From assembly GCF_900046455.1 (NCBI RefSeq), contig NZ_FCOT01000011.1, forward strand, positions 62,001 through 126,000: DNA of 64,000 nt, given 5' to 3'. The notes beneath the pieces are model-generated. The model did not search any database and was not told the DNA's origin. It worked only from the letters and a program-made list of their open reading frames with translations. Each line of letters begins with the position of its first letter. Within the stretch, counting starts at the first letter, position 1. Shown piece after piece: positions 24,018-30,952 of the stretch. The stretch comes from Cellulomonas timonensis (lineage in GTDB: Bacteria > Actinomycetota > Actinomycetes > Actinomycetales > Cellulomonadaceae). The translations under genes were made by a program, and so were the position numbers.

Positions 24018-24395
24018 TCAGCTAGCGAGCCGGGACATCACGAGGCGATTGAGTGAGACGCCCTGCTCGGCAGCTTCCGTCACCAGCCTGCGGTGCACCT
24101 CGGGGGGAACCCGAACCTGGAAGCGGCCAGAGTACGAGCGATCCGCAAGGGGCGGCGGTACCGCTTCACCGTTGGCGCGCAGATCGTTCAGCACGCTGCT
24201 CAGAAGCGCCTCGACACCGTGCAGCGCACCCTCACGGTCGCTGTCGAGCCATGACAACGAAGGAAACTCGACGACGGTCGCGACGTAGGCGTCATCCTCG
24301 CCGGACCATGTGATGCGTACGTGTAGTGAGAACGAGGTGCCGACGATCGGCTCGTCTAGTGCGGGCTGCCAGCGGTCAGCGCACCAGGCGCCCAT
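24018..24395 (-). CDS. Orphan HicB-like antitoxin-type protein
   Basis: 125 aa. The N-terminal part (SLHVRITWSGEDDAYVATVVEFP) resembles the RNase H-like HicB fold, and the last ~40 residues (SGRFQVRVPPEVHRRLVTEAA, then GVSLNRLVMSRL) form a ribbon-helix-helix DNA-binding domain, as in HicB antitoxins. The ATG lies inside the end of the ABC-F gene, overlapping by 20 bases. No HicA-like toxin is next to it, so it may be an orphan repressor or work with a distant toxin. Confidence 0.75.
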   Translation of the reverse strand: MGAWCADRWQPALDEPIVGTSFSLHVRITWSGEDDAYVATVVEFPSLSWLDSDREGALHGVEALLSSVLNDLRANGEAVPPPLADRSYSGRFQVRVPPEVHRRLVTEAAEQGVSLNRLVMSRLAS

Positions 24396-26185: not shown

Positions 26186-26575
26186 TCACGCGGGCAGCGG
26201 CCGGAGCCAGCCTCTGAGCGTCTCGGCGAGCTTCGCGACATCGTCGAGCTCCCCGGCGGCGATGCTCAGCACCAGGTCGATCGCCTCGGCATGGGGCGCC
26301 TCGATGAGGCGCCCGTTCATCTCGTAGAAGACTGCCGTCGACACCCAGCCGAGCCGCTTGTTGCCATCGACCAGCCCGTGGTTGTGCACGACCGAGAGCA
26401 GCAGGGCGGCCGCCTTCTCGTCGAGAGTCGCGTACGCGTCCTCTCCGAACACTGTGGCCCGGGGGCGCGCGAGCGCCGACTCCAGGAGCCCGTAGTCCCG
26501 CACCTCGGGGTCGTGCCCGAGGATCGCCGCCCCGAAGAGCAGGAGATCCTGCAGCTCGAGGTAGGTCGGGATCAC
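26186..26575 (-). CDS. Doc-type (Fic fold) toxin
   Basis: 129 aa death-on-curing family protein. The Fic/Doc core motif reads HNHGLVDGNKRLGWVS with catalytic His and the Asn-Lys-Arg anion site, close to HxFxDxNKR. The N-terminal EVRDYGLLESALARPRATVFG segment is typical for Doc. Doc phosphorylates EF-Tu and halts translation. The GTG start overlaps the stop of the antitoxin gene (GTGA), the usual antitoxin-first order. Confidence 0.92.
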   Translation of the reverse strand: MIPTYLELQDLLLFGAAILGHDPEVRDYGLLESALARPRATVFGEDAYATLDEKAAALLLSVVHNHGLVDGNKRLGWVSTAVFYEMNGRLIEAPHAEAIDLVLSIAAGELDDVAKLAETLRGWLRPLPA

Positions 26576-27722: not shown

Positions 27723-28445
27723 TCAGGGAGTCGGGCTCATGCTCGCCGGCGTGCCGCCCGGAGAGATCGGCAGGGCCTCCCCCGCGAGGAGCTTCTCTCC
27801 GCCGGCCACCTTGGCCTCCCACGGCTCGTTGTCCCACAACGCGGCGAGCACCTCCGCGTCCTCATATCCGTAGCCCGCGTCGGAGAAGGCGTTGGCCGCC
27901 TGGACCTCAGGCTCGAGGGGCACGGGATCCTGCATGGGCGGCGGCACGATCTCACCGTCCAGGACCTTCTGGCCGATCAGCGCCTTGGTCTCGGTGACGT
28001 CTGTGCCCCAGAGCTCGCCGATCTGCTCGGCGTCGGTGAAGGTGTAGCCCGCCCCCGCGAAGGCCTCCCACTGCGCCCGGCTGAACCCGTCGGGCATGGG
28101 CGACCAGTTGACCCCGACCGCCTGCACGGCGTTCTCGACCACCCGCGCGACGTTCGAGTAGGGATCGGCGGCGGCCGCGGCGCCCGCGCCCACCACGGCC
28201 AGCGTCGAGGTCACGACGCCCGCGACGACGATCTTGGCGCCGCGACGAGCGGTGTCGCCGGTGGGCCGGGTGGTGGCGAGCCGGTCCTCGATGCGCGCGG
28301 CCACAACAGCGGCATCGGGTGCCGCGACCTCGCGTGAGCGCAGGGCCCGGTCGATCCGATCCATCAAGTCGGCGTCCGGTCCGAGTGGGCTCTGGGGGAC
28401 GTCACCGTCGTCTGAGCCATCGATGGCTCGCAGGTGGGTGCTCAT
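27723..28445 (-). CDS. Membrane repeat protein B, probable anti-sigma factor
   Basis: 240 aa. Residues 1-70 are acidic, cytoplasmic and helix-rich; residues ~71-92 form one membrane helix; the outer part carries two ~45-residue repeats (~123-168 and ~181-223). Each repeat follows the pattern A-F-x-x-A-G-Y-x(3)-D-A, L-W, E-x-K, K-x-L-x-G-E. The ATG overlaps the sigma gene stop by four bases, and a short cytoplasmic domain plus one helix is the usual plan of an anti-sigma factor, so it probably holds the ECF sigma factor inactive. The repeats match those of the protein at 30210-30803. No named family was recognised. Confidence 0.72.
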   Translation of the reverse strand: MSTHLRAIDGSDDGDVPQSPLGPDADLMDRIDRALRSREVAAPDAAVVAARIEDRLATTRPTGDTARRGAKIVVAGVVTSTLAVVGAGAAAAADPYSNVARVVENAVQAVGVNWSPMPDGFSRAQWEAFAGAGYTFTDAEQIGELWGTDVTETKALIGQKVLDGEIVPPPMQDPVPLEPEVQAANAFSDAGYGYEDAEVLAALWDNEPWEAKVAGGEKLLAGEALPISPGGTPASMSPTP

Positions 28446-29065
28446 GGCTGCTCCGTGGTGGTCGAGTGATCGGTGGCGCGCAGGGTGGCCAACGCCCGGG
28501 AGGCGTGCGAGCGGACGGTGGCGGCGGAGGTGCCCAGGACCCTGGCGATCTCCAGGTCGGCGAGGCCCTCGTAGAAGCGGAGCACGAGCACTGCGCGCTG
28601 GCGCGGGGGCAGCGCGGCCAGGCGCCTCCACATCGCGTCGTCCTCAACCACGCGCCGGGCGTGATCCTGCGCCGGGTCGGCGTGGGCTGCGAGGACGTCG
28701 TCGGCCGCGACGTGAATGGTGCGCACGTGCCAGCGGCGACGCCAGGACAGATGCTCGTTGGTGACCATCCGTCGCAGGTACAGGTCGGGGCGGTCCATCA
28801 TCGCGATGCGGTTCCACCGGACGTGGGCGCGCAGCAGCACCTCCTGCACCAGGTCGGCGGCGGTGTGGCCGTCTCCGGTGAGCACCGTGGCGTAACGGAG
28901 CAGCCCAGGGAGGTGGGCGTGCACCACGTCGTCGAGCCGCTGTCCGGAGCTCGCCGCGCCATGTCCGTCGTCACCCTCGACGGGCTCCTCCCGCATGGAC
29001 CGCCACGGCAGCACACGGGGGATCGCCGCACTGTCTGGCCGGGCCGATTGAGTCCACGTGCTCAT
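28442..29065 (-). CDS. SigE-family ECF RNA polymerase sigma factor
   Basis: 207 aa group IV sigma factor. Region 2 is LLRYATVLTGDGHTAADLVQ followed by the RPDLYLRRMVTNEHLSWRRR -10 recognition helix; region 4 is LPPRQRAVLVLRFYEGL with the helix-turn-helix DLEIARVLGTSAATVRSHASRA. This matches the SigE (TIGR02983-like) subgroup of actinobacterial ECF factors. The ATG at 29065 overlaps the amidoligase stop (ATGA), and its own stop overlaps the repeat protein B start. It probably controls a small regulon that includes this cluster; that is inference. Confidence 0.9.
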   Translation of the reverse strand: MSTWTQSARPDSAAIPRVLPWRSMREEPVEGDDGHGAASSGQRLDDVVHAHLPGLLRYATVLTGDGHTAADLVQEVLLRAHVRWNRIAMMDRPDLYLRRMVTNEHLSWRRRWHVRTIHVAADDVLAAHADPAQDHARRVVEDDAMWRRLAALPPRQRAVLVLRFYEGLADLEIARVLGTSAATVRSHASRALATLRATDHSTTTEQP

Positions 29066-30150
29066 CGGCGCACCCCCAGAAGGTCGTCGAGCGCGCCCTG
29101 CGGGTCGCGCGCTGCCGAGCGGTCCGGGCGCGGGATCGGGCGGGGGTCGAGGCACCGGGTCAGCAGCGCCTCCACCAGGGCCGCGCGCCGCACGATGGAG
29201 TGGCCGTCCAGGTCACCGGGCAGGATGCGCACCTCCAGGGTGTCGCGCACTGGCCGGTCGGTCAGCAGCTGCTTGAGGTTCACGTCGGCGAACTTGGTCA
29301 CGCCCGCCCCCTGCGCCGCGTCCCGCATGAGAGCCCACGCGCTGCGATCGCCCGCCTCCTGCCACGGGAGCTCGACCAGGTCCACCAGCTCCTGCGTCAG
29401 CGGCGCCACCCGGCGGCAGTCGGGGTTCGCGCCAAGCGCCGTCCACAGCTCTTCGCGCCAGTGGCCGAACAGGCGCACCACGTTGGCGAACGACTCCGGG
29501 CGCCGGAAGGGCGCGCCGTCCACATGCAGGTGCACCGCGGCCTCGCGCGGGACGGTGAAGCCGAGCTCGCGCGCGGGGCCGAGCAGCCGCTCCAGCGACA
29601 AGGCGTGGTGGGACTCGAGCGGTGGCGTGACGATCTCGCAGGGGCGCTCGCGCCCTGGCGGCAGGGTCATGGCCACCGCCACGGTGGCGCCGGCGGAGTC
29701 GTTCACGCGGGCCGCCCCGGGGAGCCCGTCCACGCGGGCGCCGAACAGCTCGGCCAGCGGTTCGAGCACTGTGGCCAGCGGCGCGTATGGGTCGGTGTGC
29801 CGCTCGATCAAGCGCAGCAGACGCCCCTCGTCGCACAGGATGCGGTACCAGTCCCGACGCCCGGGCGCCCCCGGATGCCCGGGCGTCGGAACGAGGTCCC
29901 GCTGGATGGTGATGTCGTCCACCAGGCGCGCGACCGGGCCGCCGCGCTCGTCGACCACGTCGAACGCCGGGGACAGGTGCCGGAACACCCCCACGCCCGG
30001 CACCGCTGACGGCTCGCTGTCGACGTGGAAGGACCGCCGCACCCGCCCAGCGCACCGCGCCGCGAGCTCATCCGCCAACGTCTGCCGGTCGGCCCCGGCG
30101 GGCGCCAGCAGCTCGATCTCGAAGCCTGTGCGCAACAGCAGTTCTTCCAC
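29062..30150 (-). CDS. Amidoligase-superfamily enzyme (COOH-NH2 ligase)
   Basis: 362 aa protein resembling Amidoligase_2, the glutamine synthetase/GCS-like fold that joins a carboxyl to an amino group with ATP. Matching signatures are TGFEIELLAP with Glu11 and Glu13, FHVDSEPSAVPG, CEIVTPPLES with Glu162, VHLHVDG with His197 and His199, KFADVNLKQLL with Lys276 and Asn281, and LEVRILPG with Glu306 and Arg308. The GTG at 30150 has GGAG upstream at a long spacing. It is coupled to the sigma gene and lies 59 bases after repeat protein A. The substrate is unknown; modification of the repeat proteins or a peptide is a hypothesis. Confidence 0.78.
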   Translation of the reverse strand: MEELLLRTGFEIELLAPAGADRQTLADELAARCAGRVRRSFHVDSEPSAVPGVGVFRHLSPAFDVVDERGGPVARLVDDITIQRDLVPTPGHPGAPGRRDWYRILCDEGRLLRLIERHTDPYAPLATVLEPLAELFGARVDGLPGAARVNDSAGATVAVAMTLPPGRERPCEIVTPPLESHHALSLERLLGPARELGFTVPREAAVHLHVDGAPFRRPESFANVVRLFGHWREELWTALGANPDCRRVAPLTQELVDLVELPWQEAGDRSAWALMRDAAQGAGVTKFADVNLKQLLTDRPVRDTLEVRILPGDLDGHSIVRRAALVEALLTRCLDPRPIPRPDRSAARDPQGALDDLLGVRR

Positions 30151-30209
30151 GTCGATGTCATCTCCTCGCGAGCAGTTCAGGGGCGCCGGGGTGGGTCAGG
30201 AGGTTGCGG

Positions 30210-30803
30210 TCACTCCGCGACGCCCGGCTGCCCGCTGGGCGGCACGGGCAGGGTCTCGCCCGCGAGGAGCTTCTCGCCCGCGGCGACCTTGGCCTCGTAG
30301 GTGTCCTCCGAGCTCCACAGCGCGGCGAGCTCCTCAGCGTCCTCGTAGGTGTAGCCGGCATCCCAGAACGCGGCGGCCGCTGTGGTCGCCGGGTCCTCGA
30401 CCTCGGGGGTCGGGGCGCCCAGCTCCGCCTGCTTGCCGTCCAGGATCAACTGGCCCGCCCGGGCCTTGACCTCGAACGTGTCCTCGAGCTGCCACAGGTC
30501 GCCGAGCCTCGCGAGGTCCGTCGTGGAGTAGCCCGCGGCCCAGAACGCGTCGGCGGCCGCGGAGCGGTCGTCCTCGAGAGTCGAGGCTGCCGCGATGTCC
30601 TGCTCGCCGGCGACCTCCTCGCTGATGACCGTCTCGCCGCCAGGCTGGGCGCCGCCGCCCGAGTTCAGCCCGGCGGCCATCGCGACGCCGCCTCCGGCGA
30701 GCGACAGGCCAGCGGCGACGACACCAACGGTCATCCAGCGGCGGCGCGGGCGGGCCTCGCCCTCGGCAAGGGCGGGCGTCGGGGTCGTGGTGGTGTCGTT
30801 CAT
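30210..30803 (-). CDS. Exported or membrane-anchored repeat protein A
   Basis: 197 aa. Residues 20-46 (RRRWMTVGVVAAGLSLAGGG, then AMAAG) form a signal peptide or anchor. Two ~45-residue repeats follow (~84-128 and ~141-184) with the same A-F-x-x-A-G-Y, L-W, E-x-K and K-L-L-A-G-E positions as repeat protein B; the last repeats are nearly identical (KLLAGETLP against KLLAGEALP) and the DNA is alike too. GGAGG lies five bases before the ATG. It is first in the minus-strand cluster with the amidoligase and sigma factor. No function is known. Confidence 0.72.
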   Translation of the reverse strand: MNDTTTTPTPALAEGEARPRRRWMTVGVVAAGLSLAGGGVAMAAGLNSGGGAQPGGETVISEEVAGEQDIAAASTLEDDRSAAADAFWAAGYSTTDLARLGDLWQLEDTFEVKARAGQLILDGKQAELGAPTPEVEDPATTAAAAFWDAGYTYEDAEELAALWSSEDTYEAKVAAGEKLLAGETLPVPPSGQPGVAE

Positions 30804-30952
30804 CGATCCTCCAGGTGTGTCGCGAACGTGCTGACCCTCTGAAGACGCGGCTCGACGCCCAGGTGTGCAGTCCTCTTCGCACGTCTTGCGATCGGCCAAT
30901 GTACGAGGCTCGCATCCCGCGAGGTGGGGCGATCCGGGCATAGCGTCTCGGC

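What the first reader, a model, noticed from the sequence alone, without database searches (positions are those of the whole stretch)
27723..30803. Four-gene amidoligase / ECF sigma / repeat-protein cluster
Seen: four minus-strand genes with 59-base or ATGA-overlap spacing: exported repeat protein A, an amidoligase-like enzyme with its Glu, His-x-His and Glu-x-Arg positions intact, a SigE-type ECF sigma factor, and membrane repeat protein B that looks like the anti-sigma factor. Known: amidoligases of this fold link carboxyl and amino groups in peptide and cell-wall modification. Inference: a signal-controlled system in which the enzyme could modify the Glu/Lys-bearing repeat domains outside or at the membrane, or make a ligand for them. 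I know no described system with this gene set.
Basis: partly seen in the sequence, partly recalled or inferred. Interest (0 to 1): 0.8.

Follow-up and report, generated by a model that had tools for sequence, protein, structure and literature searches.

The report
Amidoligase paired with exported repeat proteins
A bacterial peptide-bond-making enzyme of unknown purpose is almost always found beside exported proteins built from an undescribed small repeat, and in this Cellulomonas bacterium the pair is wired to a stress-type gene switch, which points to an unstudied signalling system of the cell envelope.

Summary
The four genes are real and placed as described (Cellulomonas). The enzyme matches Pfam Amidoligase_2 (47.8 bits, cut-off 22). 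The repeat proteins match no Pfam or NCBIfam family and no solved structure significantly. The repeat is a roughly 45-residue three-helix unit with near-invariant Trp, Lys, Gly and Asp.

A repeat gene lies within 3 kb of the amidoligase, on the same strand, in 70 of 71 loci surveyed, from Actinomycetota to Pseudomonadota, upstream or downstream of it. In 150 genomes of one family the same 16 carry both and 134 carry neither. The signalling partner changes by lineage: ECF sigma factor (44 of 71 loci), histidine kinase (11 of 11 Microbacteriaceae), one TIR-membrane-repeat fusion. An ECF-type promoter upstream of the operon recurs in another family at its sigma gene. Most sigma-adjacent repeat proteins share an extra cytosolic segment, as expected of an anti-sigma factor.

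So this looks like a conserved envelope-signalling module. Its chemistry is untested. I favour modification of the repeat proteins before export (about 42%) over synthesis of a ligand for them (about 33%). I found no published description, with limits given below.

The parts
30842..30871 (-). Putative ECF sigma promoter (CTGCACA - 16 bases - CGTC); start codon of A about 40 bases downstream
   Evidence: Conserved upstream of gene A in Cellulomonadaceae-type loci. Best of all 30-base sites on both strands of the 64 kb window with a matrix trained without the window's own and identical sites (21.7 bits; next 14.3). A matrix from 12 distinct sites of this group puts its best hit within 150 bases upstream of the sigma match in 16 of 27 loci of another group.
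30210..30803 (-). Exported repeat protein A, 197 aa: signal-like hydrophobic segment (residues ~24-45) and two three-helix repeats (helices at 67-121 and 138-180)
   Evidence: Translation; hydrophobic segment; AlphaFold model mean pLDDT 78.5 overall, above 80 in the repeat region; no Pfam/NCBIfam match
29062..30150 (-). Amidoligase_2 enzyme, 362 aa, GTG start, no signal segment by inspection
   Evidence: Pfam PF12224 E 2.2e-12; model pLDDT 93.4, pTM 0.90; weak Foldseek resemblance to glutamine synthetases and YbdK-type ligases; catalytic-type residues conserved in 47-48 of 48 rows
28442..29065 (-). SigE-type ECF sigma factor, 207 aa
   Evidence: Sigma70 regions 2 and 4; TIGR02983 141.1 bits, cut-off 141.55
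27723..28445 (-). Membrane repeat protein B, 240 aa: cytosolic segment (~1-70), one membrane segment, two repeats outside; candidate anti-sigma factor and sensor
   Evidence: Translation, membrane segment; profile of the B-type cytosolic segment finds 21 of 27 sigma-adjacent repeat proteins of another group at E<0.01 and 0 of 46 others, one of which (L100) is itself beside a sigma gene

Best explanation
The core is a two-part module: a cytosolic ATP-using amidoligase and exported proteins made of three-helix repeats. Shown: the two co-occur and sit side by side across two phyla. Well supported by sequence: in this genome the module is run by an ECF sigma factor that transcribes its own operon from the 30871-30842 promoter, and B holds the sigma factor at the membrane while its repeats face outward as sensor. 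Inferred: the amidoligase forms amide bonds on A and B themselves before they are exported, most likely at or near the near-invariant lysine of each repeat (K113 and K172 of A). The modified state of the repeats, or its loss or change outside the cell, is what B reports to the sigma factor, so that the operon makes more enzyme and more repeat protein when needed. In other lineages the same module reports through a histidine kinase or a TIR domain instead.
For: Adjacency: repeats within 3 kb on the same strand in 70 of 71 loci, upstream only in 47, both sides in 14, downstream only in 9. Co-occurrence: the same 16 of 150 genomes of the Paractinoplanes family, seed included (Fisher p 7e-22); of 119 relatives 16 have both, 1 enzyme only, 1 repeats only, 101 neither (p 1e-17; relatedness not corrected for). 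The two Pseudomonadota genomes with repeats found beyond the seeds both have the enzyme next door. Three Actinomycetota genomes with other Amidoligase_2 proteins have no repeats and do not match this enzyme clade. Signalling partner swaps: sigma in 44 of 71, histidine kinase in 11 of 11 Microbacteriaceae (domain confirmed on two), TIR fusion. Promoter shared across groups and found at distal repeat genes of two other genomes. For modification of the repeats: no exporter gene was seen to recur at a fixed place beside the pair (but see against); the smallest versions show only the enzyme and an exported repeat protein (15 of 71 loci have repeats but no sigma or kinase hit); 84 of 84 repeat proteins keep at least one Lys and one Asp at the conserved positions; one enzyme serves 1 to 4 repeats per protein and extra distal repeat genes.
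Against: No chemistry was or could be tested. Asp and Lys losses are independent in 147 non-redundant repeats (121 have both, 7 lack Lys, 17 lack Asp, 2 lack both; Fisher p 0.33), so an Asp-Lys crosslink inside one repeat gains no support. Both residues may be structural, and the 84-of-84 count is partly circular because the repeats were found with a profile that rewards them. Five Microbacteriaceae proteins have no repeat carrying both. In one locus (L073) an HlyD-type gene lies just before the enzyme and an ABC ATPase with a MacB/FtsX-type permease just after the TIR-repeat gene, which suits an exported product. In Pseudomonadota the repeat proteins carry what look like ordinary Sec signals, so the enzyme would have to act on a protein about to be exported unfolded. 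No recognition segment common to all repeat proteins was seen. B has no cysteine, so it is not a zinc-type anti-sigma factor.
Confidence: 0.42

Rival explanations
1. The amidoligase makes a small amide-linked molecule (for example a short peptide) that reaches the outside, and the repeats are the receptors that bind it; the sigma factor, histidine kinase or TIR domain reports binding.
For: One repeat-bearing protein is fused to a cytosolic TIR domain through a membrane segment and others to a sigma-linked cytosolic segment, which is receptor architecture. The TIR-fusion locus is flanked by HlyD-type and MacB-type ABC exporter genes. Near-invariant Trp, Lys, Gly and Asp in a small domain could be a binding site. 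Distal repeat genes occur without their own enzyme.
Against: No exporter gene was seen to recur at a fixed place beside the pair in the other loci examined (incomplete, see limits). Secreted proteins such as A and the proteobacterial forms have no output domain. No fold match that would suggest a ligand site.
Confidence: 0.33
2. The amidoligase modifies a cell-envelope precursor (peptidoglycan stem or other surface polymer), and the repeats bind or watch over the modified wall.
For: Exported location of the repeats, and ECF or two-component wiring as used by wall-stress systems (CseBC/SigE of Streptomyces as described in PMC8999054, passages seen).
Against: Hosts span groups whose walls differ in type (recalled, not tested), and the module is patchy within the genus (4 of the 6 listed same-genus genomes have the enzyme, 2 do not). 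No wall enzyme was noticed as a recurring neighbour, but neighbours were not annotated exhaustively.
Confidence: 0.12
3. The pairing marks shared control only: the enzyme and the repeats answer the same stress but do not act on each other.
For: A shared promoter explains co-expression.
Against: The pairing persists where no sigma gene is found and, in Microbacteriaceae, where no high-scoring site was found at the operon, and after the gene order flips.
Confidence: 0.08

Closest known systems
Amidoligase_2 (PF12224), GS-like COOH-NH2 ligases; survey by Iyer et al. 2009 (recalled; seen here only as a citation)
   Same: Profile match over cut-off, confident model with weak GS-like resemblance, conserved acidic, His-x-His and Glu-x-Arg positions
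   Different: This clade has two further invariant cysteines (C171, C245; 48 of 48; whether other Amidoligase_2 proteins have them was not checked) and a near-obligate exported repeat partner. The 2009 paper is not held, so whether it mentions this pairing was not checked.
ECF sigma factor with membrane anti-sigma factor
   Same: Sigma gene next to a single-pass membrane protein with a cytosolic segment, and an autoregulatory-type promoter
   Different: The sensor part is an undescribed repeat shared with secreted proteins and tied to an amidoligase; no zinc anti-sigma motif, since B has no Cys
Graspetides and other RiPPs with several cores in one precursor (abstract of PMC5934393 seen in listing)
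   Same: Ligase gene beside a gene for a genetically encoded, repeated candidate substrate
   Different: The enzyme matches Amidoligase_2, not ATP-grasp; the partners here are folded proteins of 197 and 240 aa, not short peptides
Rlo operon of Pseudomonas (PMC12239564, passages seen)
   Same: Cytosolic peptide-ligase-type protein functionally tied to envelope proteins
   Different: ATP-grasp protein, secreted aspartic protease and inactive transglutaminase membrane protein; none of these is in the four-gene set here

Membership tests
Amidoligase_2 (PF12224) | Whole-protein score over the curated cut-off | tested here: met
   47.8 bits against 22, profile positions 3-244 of 245
   E11, E13, E172, H207, H209, E306, R308 in 47-48 of 48 rows
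Amidoligase_2 (PF12224) | Glutamine-synthetase-like fold | tested here: inconclusive
   Foldseek best hits are YbdK-type ligases and glutamine synthetases, but E is about 1e-3 at best and TM 0.2-0.3
Amidoligase_2 (PF12224) | ATP-dependent amide formation | not testable with these tools
   Needs an assay
SigE-family ECF sigma factor (TIGR02983) | Sigma-70 regions 2 and 4 without region 3 | tested here: met
   PF04542 and PF08281 over cut-off; no region-3 model among the 8 families listed
SigE-family ECF sigma factor (TIGR02983) | Score over the subfamily cut-off | tested here: inconclusive
   141.1 bits against 141.55, just under
Membrane anti-sigma factor | Next to the sigma gene; cytosolic segment, one membrane segment, outer domain | tested here: met
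   (topology from hydropathy only)
Membrane anti-sigma factor | Cytosolic segment specific to sigma-linked proteins | tested here: met
   Profile from 15 B-type proteins finds 21 of 27 sigma-linked proteins of another group at E<0.01 (E for 73 short sequences) and 0 of 46 others (best 0.013); one of the 46, in L100, is beside a sigma gene and does not match. Reverse search 9 of 15; hhalign probability 68.
Membrane anti-sigma factor | Zinc anti-sigma motif | tested here: not met
   B has no cysteine
Membrane anti-sigma factor | Binds and inhibits the sigma factor | not testable with these tools
   Needs an interaction assay
Graspetide / RiPP | ATP-grasp macrocyclase and short precursor peptide | tested here: not met
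   Enzyme matches Amidoligase_2 only; partners are 197 and 240 aa

The most novel reading that the evidence does not exclude
A previously undescribed class of envelope signalling in which a GS-fold amidoligase covalently modifies, before export, a dedicated family of small helical repeat domains. The modified repeats are a common sensor or surface module that bacteria plug into ECF sigma factors, histidine kinases or TIR effectors.
Probability: 0.33. Interest if true: 0.9.

Novelty: new variant of a known kind. Interest (0 to 1): 0.72.

Why it matters
I know of no settled substrate for Amidoligase_2 enzymes (recalled). This clade comes with a genetically encoded partner that is present and absent together with it, so the substrate question becomes a two-gene experiment. 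The repeat has no family model in the two libraries searched. Swapping of the output (sigma, histidine kinase, TIR) around a fixed enzyme-repeat core suggests a general sensing unit of the bacterial envelope.

Tried and rejected
Asp-Lys crosslink inside each repeat: considered because both residues are near-invariant, but their losses are independent, so it is not claimed. C-terminal tagging as in pupylation: set aside, because the repeat proteins printed have no common C-terminus. Tat export: considered because A has an Arg-rich segment before its hydrophobic stretch, but several orthologues lack the pair. Mobile-element cargo: no match to the enzyme in plasmids or phages and no confirmed relative in viral contigs (two peptide patterns only). 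Defence: the single TIR fusion matches four PADLOC models, three of them named for TIR, and none of the other five proteins tested matches. PDB relatives of the repeat: only a chance-level hit to a mannanase (E 0.23) and no Foldseek match better than E 1.5. The enzyme profile gave only chance-level PDB sequence hits, and phmmer gave none. PHROGs: the window enzyme matches a phage amidoligase family weakly (E 0.005) and the relative L066 better (E 7e-9). The lysyl-tRNA synthetase beside the repeat gene in Brevundimonas L064 was not recognised beside seven other Pseudomonadota loci whose gene lists were printed in full (read from the first 50 residues), so it is not used.

Known limits: 68 of the 71 loci were collected by similarity to the enzyme (the window, 13 relatives, 54), many from one group (27), so they are not independent. 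Fisher values do not correct for relatedness. Family names of relatives come from record titles and recalled taxonomy. The start codons of many relatives were not fixed. The two Pseudomonadota searches sampled largely the same genomes and count as one. Neighbours: the clustering used a GC filter that dropped many frames, and one search covered 18 loci with its output cut, so an exporter or wall enzyme could have been missed. Promoter: of 17 upstream regions 13 fitted the pattern used and gave 12 distinct sites; in the other group the top site was placed within 150 bases upstream of the sigma match in 16 of 27 loci, second best in 4 more, and not among the top two in 7; in several of these the site lies so close to the sigma match that a leaderless transcript or a late start codon would be needed.
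Full report
What is there. The window lies in a Cellulomonas genome. Its closest named relative in the enzyme is the C. cellasea ET82 record, with 94% identity; a contig of the same length and match belongs to a genome listed as same genus. Four minus-strand genes run from 30803 to 27723 with a 59-base gap and two ATGA overlaps. A (197 aa) has a hydrophobic, signal-like segment and two repeats. The second gene codes for a 362-aa Amidoligase_2 protein (PF12224, 47.8 bits, E 2.2e-12). The third is an ECF sigma factor scoring 141.1 bits against the SigE-family cut-off of 141.55. B (240 aa) has about 70 cytosolic residues, one membrane segment and two repeats. A and B match no Pfam or NCBIfam model and share 53% identity over 109 residues.

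The repeat. Iterated profile searches gave 229 aligned repeat units in 72 of the 74 loci then held; the 74 include four entries for the window's own genome and two duplicate pairs. The two loci without repeats are a contig-edge fragment (L019) and L069. After removing duplicates and near-identical units, 149 repeats remain. Trp is kept in 146 of 149, Lys in 139 of 148, Gly in 137 of 147, and Asp in 129 of 148. AlphaFold gives three helices per repeat with block means of pLDDT 82-97 across residues 81-190, and low confidence in the first 70 residues. No solved structure matches by sequence at a meaningful level or by fold.

The enzyme. The model is confident (pLDDT 93.4, pTM 0.90). Foldseek's best hits are YbdK-type ligases and glutamine synthetases, but only at E about 1e-3 with low TM. 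Across 48 aligned relatives the acidic, His-x-His and Glu-x-Arg positions hold in 47-48 rows, and two cysteines are invariant. It shows no signal segment. Being of an ATP-using class (established knowledge of the fold), it should act in the cytosol.

Conservation. In 71 loci (the window, 13 relatives, 54, 3 from wider genome searches) a repeat gene lies within 3 kb on the same strand in 70. The exception, L069, lies in a genome that has repeats on another contig. The arrangements are as follows. Twenty-eight loci have sigma then repeat then amidoligase: the 27 loci of Actinoplanes relatives and one Acidothermaceae genome, plus L100. Fourteen have repeat, amidoligase, sigma, repeat, as in the window, and two more are incomplete versions of that. 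Eleven have repeat, amidoligase, histidine kinase; these are all 11 Microbacteriaceae loci, with near full-length kinase matches at E 1e-108 or better, HisKA_3 confirmed on two, a response regulator following in the one checked (L040), and about 1.1 kb between enzyme and kinase match in three of them. Eight have amidoligase then repeat, and seven have repeat then amidoligase, with no sigma or kinase match. One of the eight (L073) carries a TIR domain in the repeat protein (PF13676 E 1.1e-19) and is flanked by HlyD-type and MacB-type ABC exporter genes.

Tests without the enzyme as bait. In 150 genomes of the Paractinoplanes family the repeat profile hits 16 and the enzyme profile hits the same 16, seed included. 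In 119 relatives each hits 17, with 16 shared. The odd ones are a short enzyme fragment at a contig edge (G030) and a short repeat fragment (G057). In 296 Actinomycetota genomes repeats occur in 2 and Amidoligase_2 in 5, both counts including the window's genome. The three Amidoligase_2 genomes without repeats do not match this enzyme clade. In about 375 Pseudomonadota genomes repeats occur in two beyond the seed, and both have the enzyme next door; in one of them (G832) the repeat frame is interrupted by a stop. In 99 genomes of the Brevundimonas family only the seed has repeats. The module is therefore sparse and patchy but hardly ever split in these samples.

Wiring. A profile of the cytosolic segment of 15 B-type proteins finds 21 of the 27 sigma-adjacent repeat proteins of the other group at E<0.01, and 0 of 46 other repeat proteins (best 0.013); one of those 46, in L100, is beside a sigma gene and does not match. 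That is what an anti-sigma segment would look like, although binding is inferred. Upstream of A in the Cellulomonadaceae-type loci there is a conserved CTSCACA-N16-CGTY element. A matrix trained on those sites places its best hit, over loci mostly about 17 kb long and both strands, within 150 bases upstream of the sigma match in 16 of 27 loci of the other group. In the window the site at 30871-30842 scores 21.7 bits with its own and identical sites left out, against 14.3 for the next. At distal loci without an amidoligase the best-scoring site lies at the start of the repeat gene in L120 (17.2 bits, next 15.9) and L119 (12.8, next 11.6), and at a second sigma gene followed by a repeat gene in L116 (21.1, next 10.7). 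One distal repeat gene (L097) does not show it, nor do the Microbacteriaceae operons. An ECF regulon that includes several repeat proteins is the simplest reading.

Mechanism. Shown: enzyme and repeats are a genetic unit. Well supported: the sigma factor controls the unit and B reports from the membrane. Inferred: what the enzyme does. I favour modification of the repeats before export for three reasons. The smallest versions show only the enzyme and an exported repeat protein. No exporter was seen to recur at a fixed place beside the pair in the set I could examine, which is incomplete. Every one of 84 repeat proteins keeps at least one conserved Lys and one conserved Asp, though a profile that rewards these residues found them. 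Against this, Asp and Lys are lost independently, five Microbacteriaceae proteins never have both in one repeat, and the TIR-fusion locus is flanked by exporter genes. A ligand-and-receptor reading fits the TIR and anti-sigma-like fusions equally well. No tool here can decide between them.

Known or new. Of the 81 papers in the held library that use the word amidoligase, 70 were seen as listings and none is, by title and start of abstract, about this gene pair; searches gave none either, from the parts of their hit lists that were shown. I read passages only of PMC4431377, PMC7824862, PMC8999054, PMC12239564 and PMC8939145. The founding amidoligase survey (Iyer et al. 2009) is not held, so I cannot say whether it lists the pair. 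Parts of the system are of known kinds (Amidoligase_2, ECF sigma with membrane anti-sigma). The combination and the repeat domain are, as far as I could check, undescribed.

Noticed in passing
L073:6923-12317: Repeat protein with an N-terminal TIR domain, a membrane segment and two repeats, beside the amidoligase, with HlyD-type and MacB-type ABC exporter genes on either side: a possible immune or cell-death output, and a hint of an exported product.
   Followed up: partly
L023:8001-9080 and L023:15238-16230: Two copies of the enzyme about 6 kb apart in Cellulomonas phragmiteti, each followed by a sigma gene: a local duplication of the module.
   Followed up: no
L116, L119, L120, L097, L115: Extra repeat genes away from any amidoligase; in L116, L119 and L120 the best ECF-like site lies at the start of the gene or of the sigma gene before it, in L097 not; L115 was not scanned.
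   Followed up: partly
window 29062-30150: Two cysteines (C171, C245) are invariant in all 48 aligned relatives of the enzyme, one of them next to a catalytic-type Glu; their role is unknown.
   Followed up: no
L064:9591-11282: Class I lysyl-tRNA synthetase gene directly after the repeat gene in Brevundimonas.
   Followed up: partly
L030:9160-11373: GGDEF-EAL (cyclic di-GMP) gene just after the amidoligase; related frames lie downstream in several other Actinoplanes relatives, some on the opposite strand.
   Followed up: partly
window 26186-26575: Fic/Doc-family gene (PF02661) on the minus strand, possible toxin of a toxin-antitoxin pair.
   Followed up: no
window 24018-24395: HicB-family antitoxin-like gene (PF05534) on the minus strand.
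   Followed up: no
L064-L067, L071, L074 repeat proteins: Proteobacterial repeats alternate two types, one with a Cys in the Tyr-Cys-Asp-Ala motif and a second Cys before the next repeat, suggesting a disulphide.
   Followed up: no
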